Positions 2,779-34,017 of a stretch of DNA of 64,000 bases are shown piece after piece. The DNA lies in contig JANXYU010000029.1 of the NCBI GenBank assembly GCA_025355855.1, positions 1 through 64,000 on the forward strand, given 5' to 3'. A program made the translations under genes and the position numbers. The stretch comes from Actinomycetota bacterium (GTDB lineage: Bacteria; Actinomycetota; JAHEXW01). Positions within the stretch are counted from its first letter, which is position 1. Each line of letters begins with the position of its first letter. Under the pieces are notes generated by a model. The model was not told the DNA's origin. It did not search any database and saw only the letters and a list, made by a program, of their open reading frames with translations.

Positions 2779-3219
2779 CTAGGCTTTTATCCCGGTAGAG
2801 CCAAAACCGCCGGCGCCGCGCGTCGTGTCCTCCAAATCTTCCGCAATCTCGAACTGAGCCGTTTCAACCGCTTGGATAACCAGCTGCGCGATCTTGTCGC
2901 CCCGTTCGATGTGAAACGCTTCCGTCGGGTCCAGATTGATTAGAATAACCTTTATCTCGCCTCTGTAACCGGAATCTATCAAGCCCGGTCCGTTAACCAC
3001 CCCGATGCCGTGTTTGGCGGCCAAGCCGCTGCGCGGCTGGACAAAGCCCGCGTAGCCGTCCGGTAAGGCGATGGCTAGGCCTGTGGGTACCATCGACCTT
3101 TGGCCTGGCTCCAGCGTCACGTCAGCGGCGCTGCGCAGGTCGCACCCGGCGTCTCCTTGATGCGCGTACACCGGCGCCGGCATCCCCGGGTCGATTAGTT
3201 TGATTTTGATGTCGATCAA
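2779..3219 (-). CDS. dut: dUTP diphosphatase
   Basis: DAGCDLRSA, PRSGLAAKHGIGVVNGPGLIDSGYRGEIKV and GFGSTG motifs. Confidence 0.96.
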   Translation of the reverse strand: MIDIKIKLIDPGMPAPVYAHQGDAGCDLRSAADVTLEPGQRSMVPTGLAIALPDGYAGFVQPRSGLAAKHGIGVVNGPGLIDSGYRGEIKVILINLDPTEAFHIERGDKIAQLVIQAVETAQFEIAEDLEDTTRGAGGFGSTGIKA

Positions 3220-4262
3220 TTTATTGAATCCTCCTCGGGCAGAAAAGCCGAGGCGGCCACCTGATGTTGATTTTTACCGGCTGCTTTAGCGTGGTACAGA
3301 GCCTTATCGGCTTGTTTTAGCAGGTCGGCGCCATCTTCGGCGTGAAAGGGGTAGCTCGCGACGCCGATACTGACTGTGAGACTCGCTTTTTGGCTTGGGC
3401 CGGCCGAAAAGGCAAACTCGGCCGCCGTTTTTATTATGCGCTCGGCGGCGTTTGAACCTCCCGTCACGCCCGTTTCCGGCAGGAGCACCGTGAATTCTTC
3501 GCCTCCGAAGCGGGCCACGATGTCAATGTCTCGGCAGGTGCCGTTGATCAGCGAAGCTAGTTCGCTAAGCGCGTCGTCGCCAGCCAGGTGCCCGAATGAG
3601 TCATTGAATTCCTTGAAGTCATCGATATCGATCATTAAACAAGTAATCTGGTGACCGAATCTCTTAGCCCGTTTGATCTCTGAATCCAGTCGATTTATCA
3701 GGTACCGATGATTGAATATCATCGTCTTGTCGTCGGTCACGCACAGCTGGCGCGCGGTCTCATACAATACCGCGTTACCAAGCGCTTTAGTCAACTGGTT
3801 GACAGTGAGATCCAATACTTCCCCACCCCGGCTAGCCGCGTTTCGATAAGCCTGATTAGTTACGCAAAGGGCGCCATACACTGTCTGGCCGTTGCTTAAC
3901 GGCAGGTAAACGTGATCGTCCTCTTGCATCACGTGGTTTTCGGGCGGTTCAATGAGTGCGTCTAGAGCCGCGACCGCTTTGTTGCGCGTGTCTTGGCTCA
4001 TCCCCTTCGTGTCGGAAACGGCGAATCGCCTGTGATTGGCGTCCCAAACAATCAAGGCGTATTCGTCTAAGGCTAGCGAGTCCTCCATGATTGACTTGGC
4101 CTTACCTTTCAATTCTTCCATTACTACGGTTGAATGAACCTCGTTGACGATGTTCTTGAAGGCGTCGTGGGTGCGAAACTTACGATCAAGCTCTTCCCTT
4201 GTCATGATTAGCTCGTCCCGAAGAAGCTCAATATGAAGATCCTTGTTATGCTCTATAGCCAT
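3216..4262 (-). CDS. GAF-like sensor plus GGDEF diguanylate cyclase
   Basis: RFGGEEFTVLLPETG (GGEEF) with RDID I-site five residues upstream. Confidence 0.93.
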   Translation of the reverse strand: MAIEHNKDLHIELLRDELIMTREELDRKFRTHDAFKNIVNEVHSTVVMEELKGKAKSIMEDSLALDEYALIVWDANHRRFAVSDTKGMSQDTRNKAVAALDALIEPPENHVMQEDDHVYLPLSNGQTVYGALCVTNQAYRNAASRGGEVLDLTVNQLTKALGNAVLYETARQLCVTDDKTMIFNHRYLINRLDSEIKRAKRFGHQITCLMIDIDDFKEFNDSFGHLAGDDALSELASLINGTCRDIDIVARFGGEEFTVLLPETGVTGGSNAAERIIKTAAEFAFSAGPSQKASLTVSIGVASYPFHAEDGADLLKQADKALYHAKAAGKNQHQVAASAFLPEEDSIN

Positions 4263-13771: not shown

Positions 13772-14485
13772 TCAGTCGAGCGCGTCGCGCAGCTTATTTG
13801 TCAGCAGAGTCTCGCGAAGCTCTTTTGATAATGCGGCTAGATCTTCGAGCGTGTCGACAGCGTGAGCGCGAGCGTCCTCACTGCGCTGCAGCAGTATCGG
13901 CGCGACTATTTGCGTCAAGAAAGAGCTTTCACGCTGCGCGAAGTTTTCGTACATCCTCAGGTGACGGGGTTCCACGCCATGGCGCGCCAGGCTTTTGACA
14001 AGGTGCATGACGCGGACATTACCAGCGTCGAACAGTTTGCCTTTCGGTCCATCGACCGGCTCGACCAGACCGTACGTTACCAATTCGCTAATCTCTCGCG
14101 CGCTTAAGCCGGCGGCTTCTGAGGCCTCATCGGCTGTCATCGTCTTACTTCTATCGGTCAGGTCGTGGGAGACCTCGTTTTTGTCAGAGTGACCGCTGAC
14201 CAGTTCGCTGGCGTTTAGACGTCCACGCGCTACTTCCCGGACCTTCTCGCGGATAACCTTCAGTGGCAGGTACTGTTCCTTTTGCATCGTTAGAATAAGA
14301 CGTAGCGTCTCCGCGTCTGACTCCGTATAGCGCCGGTAACCGCCCTTACTGCGCTTCGGGTTGAGTAAGCCCTCATCCTCCAGATACCTGACCTTGCTTA
14401 TGCTAAGGTCGGGAAATTCTTTGCTCAAGCCGTCTACAACTGCGCCGATACTGAGATAGTCTTTCTTTAGAGTGCGGCTGCCCAC
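13772..14485 (-). CDS. ftsR: MerR-family regulator, FtsR-like
   Basis: LSIGAVVDGLSKEFPDLSISKVRYLEDEGLLNPKRSKGGYRRYTE; located immediately downstream of a GarA-like gene as in Actinobacteria. Confidence 0.8.
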   Translation of the reverse strand: MGSRTLKKDYLSIGAVVDGLSKEFPDLSISKVRYLEDEGLLNPKRSKGGYRRYTESDAETLRLILTMQKEQYLPLKVIREKVREVARGRLNASELVSGHSDKNEVSHDLTDRSKTMTADEASEAAGLSAREISELVTYGLVEPVDGPKGKLFDAGNVRVMHLVKSLARHGVEPRHLRMYENFAQRESSFLTQIVAPILLQRSEDARAHAVDTLEDLAALSKELRETLLTNKLRDALD

Positions 14486-14507
14486 CGTCTCCCCCTTCGC
14501 TTCTAGT

Positions 14508-14987
14508 TTACCGTCGCGCCGCGGCGGTCAAGAATATCATTTTGAACTTACCGATCTGAATCTCGTCTTGATCGTGCAGGTCAGCGCGTTCAACCTCTTG
14601 CCGGTTAACATAGGTGCCGTTCAAGCTGCCGTTATCTTGCAGAATAAAACCTGAATCACCCCGTAAAATGCGAGCGTGTTCCCGGGACACAGTAATGTCC
14701 GATAGAAATATGTCAGCTTCCGGGTGACGGCCGAGCAAGATGCCGTCGCCCTCTATCCGCCGGGTCTCTCCCCTATTTGGACCGTTCTCAATCATTAACA
14801 CGGGAACATCTTCACGGAGGTCATCAAGGCTGAGCGCGACCGTATCGTCTGATTTTTCAACCTCTATCTCGGTCGGCGAATAGATGATCGTCGTGTCCGC
14901 CGGAGAATCTCCCCCTAGCATTGATCCGCAAGAAGCGCAAAATCGCGCCTCGTTTTCGTTGACATGACCGCAGGCTGAACATTTCAT
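14508..14987 (-). CDS. garA: GarA-like FHA protein with N-terminal zinc ribbon
   Basis: CSACGHVNENEARFCASCGSML zinc ribbon; FHA LLGRHPEADIFLSDITVSREHARI...NGSLNGTYVNR...GDEIQIGKFK-like end. Confidence 0.85.
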   Translation of the reverse strand: MKCSACGHVNENEARFCASCGSMLGGDSPADTTIIYSPTEIEVEKSDDTVALSLDDLREDVPVLMIENGPNRGETRRIEGDGILLGRHPEADIFLSDITVSREHARILRGDSGFILQDNGSLNGTYVNRQEVERADLHDQDEIQIGKFKMIFLTAAARR

Positions 14988-14990
14988 AGT

Positions 14991-15260
14991 CTATTCCTCA
15001 AATTTAAAGTCCCAGGCCGCGAACGCCTTGCGCATTTCCTCATCAATGGCCTTAAGGACCGTCTCGTCTTCCATCACTTTTTCCAGCTGAGTCTCGTTTA
15101 CCCTGTTACGAACGAACGGGTCGTTGAGAATGGCGCTCACTTGTCGCCCCTGATGGAGTTCCCTGATTATGTAGTGGACGACCCGATCCTCAGCTACGTC
15201 GATCGAAGCGTCAGTAAGAATCTTGGCGATCGCCGCTCTTAACCCATGGTCTTTTTCCAT
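14991..15260 (-). CDS. Conserved hypothetical 89-aa protein
   Basis: Intact small ORF with 3-nt spacing to the GarA-like gene; no motif recognised. Confidence 0.7.
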   Translation of the reverse strand: MEKDHGLRAAIAKILTDASIDVAEDRVVHYIIRELHQGRQVSAILNDPFVRNRVNETQLEKVMEDETVLKAIDEEMRKAFAAWDFKFEE

Positions 15261-15355
15261 CAGCGCCTCCGTTACGCATAGACAAAGTTATAGTAAAGGT
15301 TGAGATAATGTCTTCATTATACTCACCCGCACTAATGTCAGGCAAGGGTTTAAGG

Positions 15356-16129
15356 TTAGTGACTATCAACCAGTTCGCCCGCTGTGACCAGCGTATATCC
15401 CTTTGCGTGCAAATAGTCGATCAGACCGGAAAGAACGGCGACGGTTTTATCTCTTTTTCCGCCAGCGTTATTGACCAAGGCTCCACCGTCGTGAAATAAG
15501 ATAACCGCGCCGGGGCGAACGAAATGCCGGACCCGCCAGGCGATCATCGGTGCGCTCAAGACACTCCAATCGGCGGCGCTGACCGACCATAAGACTATGC
15601 GGTAGCCCCGTGCCAGCAGGGCCTGCCGGACGGTGTTATTAAAGAGGCCCCGCGGCGGTCTAAACAGAACCGGCTTTATGCCTGTCGCGTCAAGGACGGC
15701 TTGATGTCCGCGGTCTATCTCGTCGGCCAATGCCGCCGCTTTTAGAAATATCATATTGACGTGGCTATACGTGTGATTGCCGACCTCGTGTCCTTCGGCC
15801 GTGACGCGGCGCGCTATATCGGTATGCTTGGCGGCCATCTGCCCTGTTAAAAAGAAAGTGGCTTTGACGTTCTTAGCGGCCAGAATGTCCAGTATCGCGG
15901 GGGTGTAGGCGGCGCTTGGTCCGTCGTCGAAAGTTAGAGCGGCTAGCCGCCTTTTTTGCCCGGCGCCGTGACGGAAAACGCCTACCTGCAAGCCGAAGCC
16001 ATGGTATTCATAGTAGCTGGATATGGCTACAATTATAGCGATGACCAGGAGGCTGGAAATGGCTGCGAGAGTAAATACCATATGTGGCGCAAATGTCCTA
16101 GAAAAGTTCTTCGTCCGTTGTCGTGTCAC
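15356..16129 (-). CDS. Membrane-anchored polysaccharide deacetylase (NodB domain)
   Basis: N-terminal TM; LAALTFDDGPSAAYTPAIL, GHEVGNHTYSHVN, FRPPRG. Confidence 0.95.
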   Translation of the reverse strand: MTRQRTKNFSRTFAPHMVFTLAAISSLLVIAIIVAISSYYEYHGFGLQVGVFRHGAGQKRRLAALTFDDGPSAAYTPAILDILAAKNVKATFFLTGQMAAKHTDIARRVTAEGHEVGNHTYSHVNMIFLKAAALADEIDRGHQAVLDATGIKPVLFRPPRGLFNNTVRQALLARGYRIVLWSVSAADWSVLSAPMIAWRVRHFVRPGAVILFHDGGALVNNAGGKRDKTVAVLSGLIDYLHAKGYTLVTAGELVDSH

Positions 16130-16394
16130 CTAAGGACGACTCTTTAGTCAATATCTCGCCCAAGCGCACAATATCTTCCTTGCTGAATAGGCGCTCACCG
16201 CGTTGTTGCTTTCCTTTAAGTCGGTCGACAAGCTCGGCGCGCAGAACATCGATCTTTCCGTGCAGAATACGGCGCCGATAGGAGACCCGTTCCTCTTCAG
16301 CTCTCAGCTTTTCCAGTGTTTGTTTTAATTCCGCGTCCGGCATACCGGATAGCTCTTTAGCCAGATCGGCGCGTTGCTTCTCGTCATTGTCCAT
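16098..16394 (-). CDS. RsiG-like small protein (putative c-di-GMP-responsive anti-sigma factor)
   Basis: 98-aa helical protein with EERVSYRRRILHGKIDVLRAELV, matching E-x3-S-x2-R-x3-[Q>H]-x3-D. Confidence 0.75.
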   Translation of the reverse strand: MDNDEKQRADLAKELSGMPDAELKQTLEKLRAEEERVSYRRRILHGKIDVLRAELVDRLKGKQQRGERLFSKEDIVRLGEILTKESSLGDTTTDEELF

Positions 16395-16465
16395 GCTTTT
16401 TTACGCCTTTCCCTTTAGATTCGTGCTAATCGCTCTTTTCGGCTCCCTGTCTGTTGTATTGTATC

Positions 16466-26963: not shown

Positions 26964-28221
26964 CGCGGCCGTCGACTCTCCCCCGCTCGCGACCGCTTCT
27001 GATATTATTCACTTGGATATGGACGCCTATTTCGCGTCTGTCGAGCAACGCGACATGCCTCTTTATCGCGGCCGCCCCCTGGTCGTCTGCCACACGGACG
27101 ACCCGAACTCTCTCCGCGGCGTGGTTTCTGCGGCCTCTTACGAGGCCCGGACCTATGGGGTCAAGGCCGGCGTTTCCGTACTGGAGGCGAAAAAGGTGCT
27201 CAAAAACGCCATCTTCATCGCCGGCAACTACGACAAATATCTCCACACCACCCGCCAGATCAAGGATATCTGCCGGCGCTACTCCGATGTCGTCGAGGTT
27301 TATTCCGTCGACGAGCTGTTTATCGACGCGTCCAAAGTCAAACATCTTTTCGGCGGGACCGCTCGCGTCGCTCTGGAAATCAAACGAGCCATTCAAAACG
27401 AGCTCAACCTGACAGCGTCCGTTGGTGTCGGCCCCAACAAACTGGTGGCCAAAATGGCGTCGGAACTCAACAAACCCGACGGCTTCACCGTCATCGAACC
27501 GCAGGATCTGCCCGACGTATTCGCGTCTTTGCCCGTCGGAGACATCGTCGGCGTCGGCCGGCGGATGAAACGTCATTTCGACGCCATCGGGGTCAAAACG
27601 ATCGGCGATCTGTCGCGCGTCCCGGTATCTTATCTGACGGCCAAATTCGGCGTAGTGGGAGCGGCCCTGCACAACGCGTCGCTGGGCATAGACGGTTCAG
27701 TCGTAGCGGGACGCCAGGCCAGGGAGATAGTCAAATCCTTTGGCCACACCAATGCTCTCAGCGGGGGCTTATCAGACAAGCGCGAACTAAAAAGGTTGCT
27801 TCTGGGGCTTACGGAAGGCGTAGCGCGACGGATGCGCCGAGAGGGCTATTACGGCCGAGCCATAACGCTTCGCCTATCGCTAGCCCGCATGTTCTCAATT
27901 TCCCGTTCTAAAACCACCGCATATTTCACCCAGGAAGCTAAGGATATTTACCCCATCGCCGTCGCCCTGTTCGACCGGGAAAGCGAGCTTGTCGAGCAAT
28001 ATCCGCCGTCTTTGATCGGCGTCTCAGTCAGCCGTCTGATAAGAACGGAAGACGGCATCCAGCTGTCGGTTTTCGACCTAATCGAAAGAAAGAACAAGGA
28101 GCTTACCGGTGCAGTTGACGCCGTCCGGGATAAATTCGGGGAAAGAGCAGTTTTCCGGGCCTCGCTCGACACCTGGAAACGGCAACACCATACCGTCCCC
28201 CGGCTGGAGGTTGCTAAGTAA
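26938..28221 (+). CDS. dinB: Y-family DNA polymerase (Pol IV/DinB)
   Basis: IIHLDMDAYFASVEQRD, YSVDELFID, SVGVGPNKLVAKMAS. TTG at 26938 has a GGAG RBS; the track start at 26806 lies inside the upstream gene. Confidence 0.94.
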   Translation: MTGFIPRDSAAVDSPPLATASDIIHLDMDAYFASVEQRDMPLYRGRPLVVCHTDDPNSLRGVVSAASYEARTYGVKAGVSVLEAKKVLKNAIFIAGNYDKYLHTTRQIKDICRRYSDVVEVYSVDELFIDASKVKHLFGGTARVALEIKRAIQNELNLTASVGVGPNKLVAKMASELNKPDGFTVIEPQDLPDVFASLPVGDIVGVGRRMKRHFDAIGVKTIGDLSRVPVSYLTAKFGVVGAALHNASLGIDGSVVAGRQAREIVKSFGHTNALSGGLSDKRELKRLLLGLTEGVARRMRREGYYGRAITLRLSLARMFSISRSKTTAYFTQEAKDIYPIAVALFDRESELVEQYPPSLIGVSVSRLIRTEDGIQLSVFDLIERKNKELTGAVDAVRDKFGERAVFRASLDTWKRQHHTVPRLEVAK

Positions 28222-30619
28222 CTAGTTTGAACCCTTTCTTAAATATCGTAGCGGCCGCATCGGCCACAACGGGGTCGTAGAGCCGTCCTCGATTCTTCTT
28301 GATCTCAGCCAGCGCGTCCTCTACCGTAAGAGCGGGACGGTAAGGTCGGTGGCTCGCCATTGCTTCTATCACGTCGGCGACGGCGAGAATGCGCGCTTCC
28401 AGCCGGATGTCGTCGCCTTTTAGACCTTGCGGATAACCTGACCCGTCCATTCGTTCGTGATGCTGCAGCGCGATGTCGGCGACCGGCCAGGGGAAGTCTA
28501 TCTCGTTTAACACTTCGTAACTATAGCGCGGGTGAACCTTGATCATCCGGAATTCCAGGTCGGTCAACGCGCCCGGTTTGCTTAGTATCTCCGCCGGCAC
28601 ATATATCTTACCGACGTCATGCAATGTCGCAGCTATACGCAGGCCCTGTCGCGTATCCTCACTCAATTTCATCTCCTCGGCGATAGCCAAGGCTATTTGA
28701 ACTACTTGACGCTCGTGGCCGACTGTATACGGATCTTTATGCTCGGCCAAGGTGGCAATCGCCTTAACCGAGTCCTCCATTGCTTTGTTTATCTGCCGGT
28801 AGCTTTGTTTAAGTTCTTTTTGACGTTCCATTCCGCCTAAAGCGAACGAGATGTTGCCTGCGACTCTATCCAAGAGTCGTACCTCTTCCTCGTCTCACAA
28901 ACCCGGGTCGCCGCTAAAAGCGATAAGCGCCCCCACCGCCGCTCCGTTGATAACCAGCGGAAAGGCTCCGGATATCGCGAAACCGGCTCGCGCGTTCATC
29001 TCTCGCCAGGCCGGGGTAACCTTAGAATCACGCATGTCTATGCAAATCACGTTCTTAGCCTTCTCCATAAGGTCACCTAGCATCGGGTTGTCCGGGGTCA
29101 AATGCTCTAGATACTTATCTAGCGATTGCTTGAAATCCGCCGGTTTGCCAAGCCAGGTGTATGTTTTTAGCTTGTCTTTGTCTTTCATCAGTATAGCGGC
29201 CCAGGAATAGTCGGCGTTTTCAACCAATATTCTGCAGACGGCTTGACTCAATCTTTTGCGATCATGTATGCGCAACGTGTTCTCACTGATCTCGCCCAGA
29301 ACCGTATACATCGTCAAGGAACGATCAAGTTTTTTATAGCTGTCTATAAGTTCTTCTTGCCGCTTGACTAGATCGTTCTCATATTGTTTCTTGTCAGTGA
29401 TCTCGATTGTATAGACGCGCATGCCGCCGGGCTCATCAGATGGAACGATTGATTCCGCGAAGAAACTCTCGCCCACCTTAACCTCCCGGTAGAGGGCGGC
29501 CCTAGTGCGGTTGCTGGCCATTGAAGTCATTAAGGTTCTATAGTCCGCGGGTTTAAACAGATCGTATTTGCCGTCCTGTCCAGCCTGTTGCAGTTTTTGT
29601 GTAGCGGCGCTGTTGTTGAATATGAGCGCACCCGTTTGATCGAATTCAACTATCGGGCTGGGGTTCTGGCGCGGGAAGGACGCCGCATGCTCCAGCTCCA
29701 TTGTCCGGTAGGCGACAGCCTGAGTCAGATAGCGCTGCCTGTCCAACACCCCGGTCACGATAATAGACAGCAGCAGTACGATTATCGTGCCCCCAGCCAA
29801 CATGCTTATCTGACGGTTGGCGACAGACGCGGCCCAACCGCCCTTCGGAACGGCCGCGACCTCCCAATAACCGCCTGGCACATATACCTTATAGACGACC
29901 GGGTCAGCCCCGAACACATCGGCTTTTTGATAAAGAACATCTCCGCTCTTGGTGCGTAAGGCGACGTTAAGCGACGTCGATTTGTTATCCAGACCTGTCT
30001 CTTTAATCAATTGGGATACGTTAAAGACGATCTGGGTGGTGGCGTAGAAACTGCCGTCCGGGTTAAATAGCGGTTCTCTGGCGACAAAACCGCTGCCGCC
30101 TTGCAATAACTCATAAGGACCGCCGACAATCGTCTTTTTAGTTGCGATACCTCTCTTGATGTCGTTTTGGACCGCGACCCTTTTGTCATGCAAGAGGTCG
30201 GCTCCGATTGCCGCTTCGTTGCCTTCACGCGGATAAACGTAGGTAATTATGGCGTTCGGTGCAATCTCAACCGCGCGAATCCCCGGATCGCGCGACACCA
30301 ACCCTCGGGCAAACGAATCAAACTCGTTTGTCAGCTCGCTCGGAGTGTGGCTAATAAGGAGAAACGCCGTAAGACCGTTCAGTTGCCCTAAACGCTCGCT
30401 GAGCTGCAACTCGAGAACGTCCTTATATGACGCCAAATCCTGGGCGACATGTTGCCTTGATTCCTCCAGCAGACGCGCTTGGTATTCACGGTATGCTATG
30501 AGCGAGGGTACGGCGAGAACGAGAAAGACAATTGAGAATATTACCAATAGCCGCGCCGCGTACGCCGGCTTCGGGACCCGATACTTAGAGGTTGTTTTCG
30601 GAGCGGTTGTCCGCGTCAC
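28214..30619 (-). pseudogene. CHASE-PAS-GAF-HD-GYP sensor split by an in-frame UGA at 28895..28897 (ORFs 28895..30619 and 28214..28873)
   Basis: Upstream ORF ends ...ALIAFSGDPGL*; the same frame continues DEEEVRLLDRVAGNISFALGG...HDVGKIYVPAEIL...HHERMDGSGYP. Confidence 0.75.
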
Positions 30620-33114: not shown

Positions 33115-34017
33115 TTATGGGGTAAAGACGACTACCCGGTTACGTCCGCTCTCCTTGGCTTGATACATGGCTTTGTCACCCTGTCCCAGCACTGTGTCGG
33201 GCACCGCGCTCCCGTCAATAGGGGCAACACCGATGCTTAAGGTAAGATTGAAATCCCAATCCCCGTCTCGATAACCGTCCACCTCTTGACGCATCCGTTC
33301 CGCTACCAGCAATGCCTCATCTATGCCCTGGCCCTCCAGCAGCGCGGCAAACTCGTCTCCGCCGACGCGGCCCAGCATGTCCTCTTTCCTAATCCAGCGC
33401 GTAAGCGCGACTGTTAGATCACAGAGGGTATTGTCACCAACTTCATGCCCGAATGTGTCGTTGACCTTCTTGAAATAATCAACGTCAATAAATAGCAGGG
33501 AGCTTACTCGTCCGCGCGCCGCGCGCGCCACCGCTCGCTCCAGCGCTTCCTGCAAAGCACGCCGGTTGGCGACGCCGGTCAAGGGATCGTGGGCCGCCAT
33601 GAACGCCATACTCTCGGTGTATTCTTTGGTCTCAGTAACGTCATAACATGACCCAACGTACCCGCCAAACGACCCGTTCAGCGCTTCGTAAGGCCGCCCG
33701 AAATCCTTTATCCAGCGATAAACGCCGTCATACCTGCGCAACCTATACTCCATGTCGAAAGGTTCACGCTTTGCAAAAGCATCCACATAAGTCTGAAAAC
33801 ACCTATCCAGATCATCCGAATGGACTCCCTCGGCCCAGCCGTCACCTAGCTCTCGTTCTAATGTTCGGCCGGTAAACTCTAGCCAGGCCTTGTTAAAATA
33901 GTCACACTTGCCGTCAAGTCCGCTGCGCCATATCAAAGCCGGAAAATCGTCAAACATCTTTAGCGCGAGCTCACACTCGTCGTTATTGACCGGTCGTTTG
34001 TCGCTCGCGTCAGTCAT
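33115..34017 (-). CDS. PAS-GGDEF diguanylate cyclase
   Basis: PAS/PAC region, GRVGGDEFAALL with RKED I-site. Confidence 0.94.
   Translation of the reverse strand: MTDASDKRPVNNDECELALKMFDDFPALIWRSGLDGKCDYFNKAWLEFTGRTLERELGDGWAEGVHSDDLDRCFQTYVDAFAKREPFDMEYRLRRYDGVYRWIKDFGRPYEALNGSFGGYVGSCYDVTETKEYTESMAFMAAHDPLTGVANRRALQEALERAVARAARGRVSSLLFIDVDYFKKVNDTFGHEVGDNTLCDLTVALTRWIRKEDMLGRVGGDEFAALLEGQGIDEALLVAERMRQEVDGYRDGDWDFNLTLSIGVAPIDGSAVPDTVLGQGDKAMYQAKESGRNRVVVFTP

What the first reader, a model, noticed from the sequence alone, without database searches (positions are those of the whole stretch)
16098..16394. Single-motif RsiG-like anti-sigma candidate, potentially c-di-GMP-gated, outside Streptomyces
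Seen: a 98-aa, all-helical ORF with ...AEEERVSYRRRILHGKIDVLRAELVDRL, which fits E-x3-S-x2-R-x3-Q-x3-D except that Q is H. Established: this motif binds c-di-GMP in RsiG, the anti-sigma of the FliA-like sigma WhiG in Streptomyces. Streptomyces RsiG carries two motifs, whereas a Rubrobacter RsiG carries one and works as a homodimer. Inference: this protein is an ancestral-type one-motif RsiG with a Q-to-H ligand change, in a lineage not necessarily known for sporulation. It overlaps a membrane polysaccharide deacetylase gene, suggesting an envelope or development output. No sigma factor is in the window, so the partner must be elsewhere.
Basis: partly seen in the sequence, partly recalled or inferred. 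Interest (0 to 1): 0.75.

Follow-up and report, generated by a model that had tools for sequence, protein, structure and literature searches.

The report
Single-motif RsiG, partner of WhiG
The small gene encodes an ordinary, probably working copy of a known bacterial switch protein (RsiG) that uses the signal molecule c-di-GMP to hold back a transcription factor (WhiG), in a little-known groundwater-related actinobacterium where the switch probably controls pili rather than spores.

Summary
The ORF and the motif are real. The 98-aa protein scores 62 bits against Pfam RsiG (cut-off 27), and its best solved relatives are Rubrobacter and Streptomyces RsiG. Its partner is in the same genome: a WhiG that passes NCBI's WhiG model and lies beside rpsB-tsf. 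The genome also has 13 GGDEF domains, HD-GYP proteins in the window and type IV pilus genes, but no detected flagellin. Across 61 genomes RsiG never occurs without WhiG. So "RsiG" is supported.

The "novel" parts are not. Histidine at the glutamine position is common, and Conexibacter RsiG with histidine was shown to bind c-di-GMP. Single-motif homodimeric RsiG is published, and the deacetylase overlap is restricted to this family. Most likely output: a conserved WhiG-type promoter lies before the aroE-pilB pilus operon.

Not in the papers I could search: all 29 single-motif loci examined, from 12 families, lie upstream of a GarA-like FHA gene, with the cell-division regulator ftsR next wherever the held DNA reaches; none of 24 twin-motif loci do. 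Single-motif RsiG also extends beyond the two classes published. Verdict: new member of a known kind, moderate interest. Binding, dimerisation and sigma inhibition are inferred, not shown.

The parts
16098..16394 (-). rsiG: single-motif anti-sigma factor for WhiG, 98 aa
   Evidence: Pfam PF22802 62 bits vs cut-off 27; PDB hits 7lq4, 7lq2, 7lq3, 6pfj; AlphaFold2 helices 2-15, 20-64, 72-87
16248..16295 (-). c-di-GMP motif E34-x3-S38-x2-R41-x3-H45-x3-D49
   Evidence: E, S, R and D invariant in 29 single-motif RsiGs; position 45 is H in 20 and Q in 9
15356..16129 (-). membrane polysaccharide deacetylase between rsiG and the garA-like gene; a lineage insertion, not part of the conserved cluster
   Evidence: PF01522 127 bits; next to rsiG only in families f1 and f2; ATG at 16081 is an alternative start
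14991..15260 (-). 89-aa all-helical protein of unknown function, often between rsiG and the FHA gene
   Evidence: no Pfam or NCBIfam match; homologues at the same place in f1, f2, f18, f21 and Ca. Aquicultor; AlphaFold2 pLDDT 81 without a PDB fold match
14508..14987 (-). GarA/OdhI-like FHA protein with N-terminal zinc ribbon; conserved neighbour of single-motif rsiG
   Evidence: FHA PF00498; best PDB matches GarA and OdhI at 1e-24 to 2e-23; below NCBI's OdhI cut-off
13772..14485 (-). ftsR: MerR-family regulator; conserved neighbour of single-motif rsiG
   Evidence: NCBIfam NF050798 FtsR 220.5 bits vs cut-off 150; PDB Rv1828 at 1e-12
3216..4262 (-). diguanylate cyclase candidate, GGEEF intact
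   Evidence: PF00990 153 bits; motif
33115..34017 (-). PAS-GGDEF diguanylate cyclase candidate, GGDEF intact
   Evidence: PF00990 141.6 bits; motif
28214..28831 (-). HD-GYP-type phosphodiesterase candidate
   Evidence: PF13487 157.6 bits
24754..26334 (-). PAS-GAF-HD-GYP-type phosphodiesterase candidate
   Evidence: PF13487 128.6 bits

Best explanation
The ORF is rsiG, a single-motif anti-sigma factor. [quoted passage not shown] Each copy offers one motif (E34, S38, R41, H45, D49), so the dimer grips two c-di-GMP molecules and clamps the genome's single WhiG, keeping it off RNA polymerase. When c-di-GMP falls, as the balance of 13 GGDEF proteins and HD-GYP phosphodiesterases shifts, WhiG is released. 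Its likeliest target is the aroE-pilB1-pilB2-pilT-pilC-pilin operon, because a WhiG-type promoter lies in front of it; the genome shows no flagellin. Shown here: family membership, invariant ligand residues, presence of the WhiG partner and c-di-GMP enzymes, co-occurrence, and the conserved promoter-like site. Inferred from relatives: dimerisation, c-di-GMP binding, WhiG binding and pilus control.
For: Pfam RsiG over cut-off and solved RsiG relatives. WhiG at C13:61677-62459 between xerC and rpsB-tsf: 368 bits against NCBI's WhiG equivalog model, cut-off 343; best PDB match S. venezuelae WhiG at 7e-94. The WhiG residues that touch c-di-GMP, K57, G61 and R62 in S. venezuelae, are present as K40, G44 and R45. 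Ligand residues invariant in 29 relatives. In 61 genomes: both 45, RsiG only 0, WhiG only 2, neither 14, Fisher 5e-12 (related genomes, so nominal). 13 GGDEF domains, no EAL, two HD-GYP-type proteins in the window. TAAA-N15-GCCGATAC before aroE-pilB, kept in a sister species. Such sites at three pilus genes of three families against 0.05 expected, 0 of 500 permuted patterns reach as many. No flagellin. Rubrobacter precedent: PMC8325347.
Against: No binding, dimer or expression data. The monomer model has no PDB fold match, as one long helix is uninformative. The ends of RsiG, which grip sigma in Rubrobacter, are poorly conserved. The pilus promoter site has one mismatch, its TAA is also the stop codon of the gene upstream, and G002 keeps only a two-mismatch site. 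Genome-wide the consensus is only mildly commoner than its reversed control (220 against 138), and most one-mismatch sites are inside genes. The site before the C3 GGDEF gene has spacing 16, not 15. The genome is 91% complete, so a flagellin could be missing.
Confidence: 0.85

Rival explanations
1. RsiG and WhiG form the c-di-GMP switch, but its main output is not pili: it controls other genes such as the division cluster at mraZ, a GGDEF gene, or secreted envelope proteins.
For: A one-mismatch site before mraZ is also kept in the sister species; a site with spacing 16 lies before the best-scoring GGDEF gene on C3; a site lies before a large secreted protein. rsiG sits near ftsR, a regulator of ftsZ in Corynebacterium (PMC6683498).
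Against: The mraZ site lacks the leading G of the -10 element and overlaps a plausible housekeeping -10. Only the pilus sites were found again in other families and exceed permuted controls.
Confidence: 0.25
2. The RsiG fold and WhiG partnership are kept, but this protein no longer responds to c-di-GMP and is a constitutive or differently gated anti-sigma factor.
For: Ligand affinity cannot be read from sequence; published single-motif RsiGs bind c-di-GMP alone only at 12-25 uM (PMC8325347).
Against: All four of E, S, R and D are invariant and the fifth position is H, shown to work in Conexibacter; the c-di-GMP contacts on WhiG are kept; GGDEF enzymes are abundant.
Confidence: 0.07
3. The resemblance is a chance match of a charged helical protein.
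For: Short, charged helix; one motif only.
Against: 62 bits against a curated cut-off of 27, specific RsiG hits in the PDB, conserved synteny and co-occurrence with WhiG.
Confidence: 0.01

Closest known systems
Rubrobacter radiotolerans RsiG (PDB 7lq4, 7lq2, 7lq3; PMC8325347)
   Same: One motif, small helical protein, WhiG in the same genome, type IV pilus operon with a WhiG-type promoter; locus L021 (RsiG identical to the structure over the 46 aligned residues) also has FHA and ftsR-like neighbours
   Different: H instead of Q in the motif; longer linker after the coiled coil; deacetylase gene inserted after rsiG; different deep-branching lineage
Conexibacter woesei RsiG (PMC8325347)
   Same: One motif with H at the Q position; c-di-GMP binding measured
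   Different: Class Thermoleophilia; its sequence was not compared here
Streptomyces venezuelae RsiG (AmfC; PDB 6pfj, 6pfv)
   Same: Same family and motif; partner WhiG
   Different: Two motifs in one chain acting as a monomer; controls sporulation; no FHA or ftsR-like neighbour in any of the twin-motif loci examined
odhI/garA-ftsR cluster of Actinobacteria (PMC6683498)
   Same: FHA gene followed by ftsR
   Different: rsiG does not appear in what I read of that paper; here rsiG lies upstream of the pair in all single-motif loci examined

Membership tests
RsiG (Pfam PF22802) | Score over the curated family cut-off | tested here: met
   62.1-62.4 bits against 27
RsiG (Pfam PF22802) | c-di-GMP motif E-x3-S-x2-R-x3-[Q/H]-x3-D | tested here: met
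   Residues 34-49; Q/H accepted by PMC8325347
RsiG (Pfam PF22802) | Cognate WhiG sigma in the genome | tested here: met
   NF004935 WhiG 368 bits vs 343, TIGR02479 283 vs 189.6
RsiG (Pfam PF22802) | Binds c-di-GMP | not testable with these tools
   Needs purified protein
RsiG (Pfam PF22802) | Binds and inhibits WhiG in a c-di-GMP-dependent way | not testable with these tools
   Needs purified proteins or two-hybrid
Single-motif (homodimeric) RsiG | One motif in one short chain | tested here: met
   98 aa, one match; twin-motif genomes give two matches
Single-motif (homodimeric) RsiG | Antiparallel homodimer | not testable with these tools
   Only monomers can be folded here; the monomer has the long motif helix
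Single-motif (homodimeric) RsiG | Glycine-rich linkers joining coiled coil and ends | tested here: inconclusive
   Gly66 is conserved in 27 of 29, but after the helix the window protein has only G61 and G66
Rubrobacter-type pilus switch | WhiG-type promoters in the type IV pilus cluster | tested here: met
   One-mismatch site before aroE-pilB, kept in G018; 3 observed vs 0.05 expected over families. Promoter activity itself not tested

The most novel reading that the evidence does not exclude
In the single-motif lineages rsiG belongs to one ancient cluster with a GarA/OdhI-like FHA protein, ftsR and sometimes an 89-aa helical protein, so that c-di-GMP gating of WhiG is tied to kinase-controlled metabolism and to cell division; the link was lost in the twin-motif lineages.
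Probability: 0.25. Interest if true: 0.5.

Novelty: new member of a known kind. Interest (0 to 1): 0.33.

Why it matters
[quoted passage not shown] The strict rsiG-garA-ftsR gene order gives a simple marker of single-motif RsiG and a testable hint that the switch is, or was, coupled to metabolism and division.

Tried and rejected
Q-to-H as a new ligand change: rejected, H is the majority residue and binding by an H-type RsiG is published. Deacetylase overlap as functional link: rejected as lineage-specific. A WhiG-type site before rsiG itself (16436-16463, two mismatches, spacing 16): rejected, not kept in L100. Genome-wide counting of WhiG sites: too noisy, mostly inside genes. Fold search with the RsiG monomer and with the 89-aa protein: no meaningful match. 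G002 site TAAAGATGCTATCGCATCTGCCGATAC: resembles the pilus site but is inside a gene, before what looks like a prephenate dehydrogenase. Naming the class: not possible; nearest named records are MAG nzgw113 and Ca. Aquicultor secundus.

Full report
Observation. The ORF at 16098-16394 on the minus strand is present as described: 98 aa from ATG, with residues 34-49 EERVSYRRRILHGKID. The pattern E-x3-S-x2-R-x3-[QH]-x3-D is found once in 49,302 six-frame residues of the window. The family match is well beyond chance: Pfam PF22802 RsiG 62 bits, cut-off 27; solved relatives are Rubrobacter RsiG (7lq4, 7lq2, 7lq3; about 3e-8) and Streptomyces RsiG (6pfj; 5e-7). AlphaFold2 on 29 relatives gives helices 2-15, 20-64 and 72-87, with the motif in the long helix.

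Partner and signal. The genome (1.34 Mb, 91% complete) holds one sigma factor over the FliA/WhiG cut-off, on contig C13 in an xerC-whiG-rpsB-tsf order. It passes NCBI's WhiG equivalog model (368 bits, cut-off 343), and its best solved match is Streptomyces WhiG (7e-94). The residues by which Streptomyces WhiG touches c-di-GMP (K57, G61, R62) are present as K40, G44 and R45. c-di-GMP can be made: 13 GGDEF domains, two of them in the window with intact GG[DE]EF. There is no EAL domain, but HD-GYP-type proteins are present, two in the window. In 61 genomes of the phylum RsiG never occurs without WhiG: both 45, WhiG only 2, neither 14 (Fisher 5e-12, nominal because the genomes are related).

What is not new. 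PMC8325347 describes single-motif RsiG, its homodimer, its WhiG complex and its likely control of pili in Rubrobacter. It also reports that Q is often H in the first motif and that Conexibacter RsiG with H binds c-di-GMP (Kd 25 uM). In my 29 single-motif proteins position 45 is H in 20 and Q in 9, while E34, S38, R41 and D49 never vary. The Q-to-H change is therefore ordinary.

Distribution. In 397 genomes drawn across the phylum 248 have an RsiG match. Among the 53 loci fetched and read, 29 single-motif loci come from 12 families; Ca. Aquicultor secundus is a further case. The paper found single-motif RsiG only in Rubrobacteria and Thermoleophilia, 5 of 135, so the type is broader than published. 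The nearest named records are MAG nzgw113 (89% identity) and Ca. Aquicultor secundus (48%; class Aquicultoria). The class of the window organism itself is not established.

Gene neighbourhood. The deacetylase lies next to rsiG only in this family and in the one other family of the same order, without overlap in the latter. The conserved neighbours are others. All 29 single-motif loci have an FHA gene downstream, and a MerR-type gene follows wherever the held DNA reaches far enough; in the window it does. None of the 24 twin-motif loci has either within 1.5 kb (Fisher 2e-15 on 28 and 24, nominal). One of the 29, L034, is counted as single-motif from its single family match and short frame, since the strict pattern was not found in it. 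The FHA protein is GarA/OdhI-like, though below NCBI's OdhI cut-off, and the MerR protein is FtsR (220 bits, cut-off 150). The garA/odhI-ftsR order is known (PMC6683498), but PMC8325347 mentions neither FHA nor MerR, and no held paper combines RsiG with FHA domain or OdhI. Locus L021, whose RsiG is identical to the Rubrobacter structure over the 46 aligned residues, has the same order. A small 89-aa helical protein of unknown function sits between rsiG and the FHA gene in several families.

Output. The genome has type IV pilus genes but no detected flagellin. On C21 a site TAAA-N15-GCCGATAC lies before aroE-pilB; pilB carries an MshEN domain, which binds c-di-GMP in other bacteria (own knowledge). 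The site is kept in the sister species G018, where the operon continues pilB2-pilT-pilC; in G000 the operon is split over contigs C21 and C32, which I join by this comparison. Sites with at most one mismatch occur before three pilus genes of three families among 75 upstream segments, against 0.05 for permuted patterns (0 of 500 reach 3). Caveats: the TAA of the site is also a stop codon, and G002 has only a two-mismatch site. A site before mraZ is also kept but lacks the leading G and may be a housekeeping promoter.

Mechanism and verdict. The best explanation is the Rubrobacter mechanism: an RsiG dimer holds two c-di-GMP molecules and WhiG, and WhiG is freed when c-di-GMP falls, most likely to transcribe pilus genes. 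Membership is shown by sequence; dimerisation, ligand binding and sigma inhibition are inferred. The finding is a new member of a known kind. The strict rsiG-garA-ftsR order is the part a specialist may not know.

Noticed in passing
window 13772-16394 and L017-L057 single-motif loci, L101:7022-8935: Single-motif rsiG is always followed by a GarA-like FHA gene and, where the DNA reaches, an ftsR-like gene (29 of 29 loci, 12 families); no twin-motif locus (24) shows this.
   Followed up: partly
window 14991-15260: 89-aa all-helical protein without any family match, conserved between rsiG and the FHA gene in several families.
   Followed up: partly
L101:3847-6632: In Ca. Aquicultor two genes that look like the glycine cleavage gcvP subunits lie directly upstream of rsiG.
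   Followed up: no
G000 contig C3:2516-13133 (L112): Four GGDEF domains in about 11 kb; a WhiG-type site with spacing 16 precedes the last of these genes.
   Followed up: partly
G000 C21:113543-113569 (L115:5544-5570): Conserved WhiG-like site before mraZ of the division and cell-wall cluster, also in the sister species.
   Followed up: partly
G030 and G056 (family f22): WhiG over the cut-off but no RsiG match: WhiG without this anti-sigma factor, or with a divergent one.
   Followed up: no
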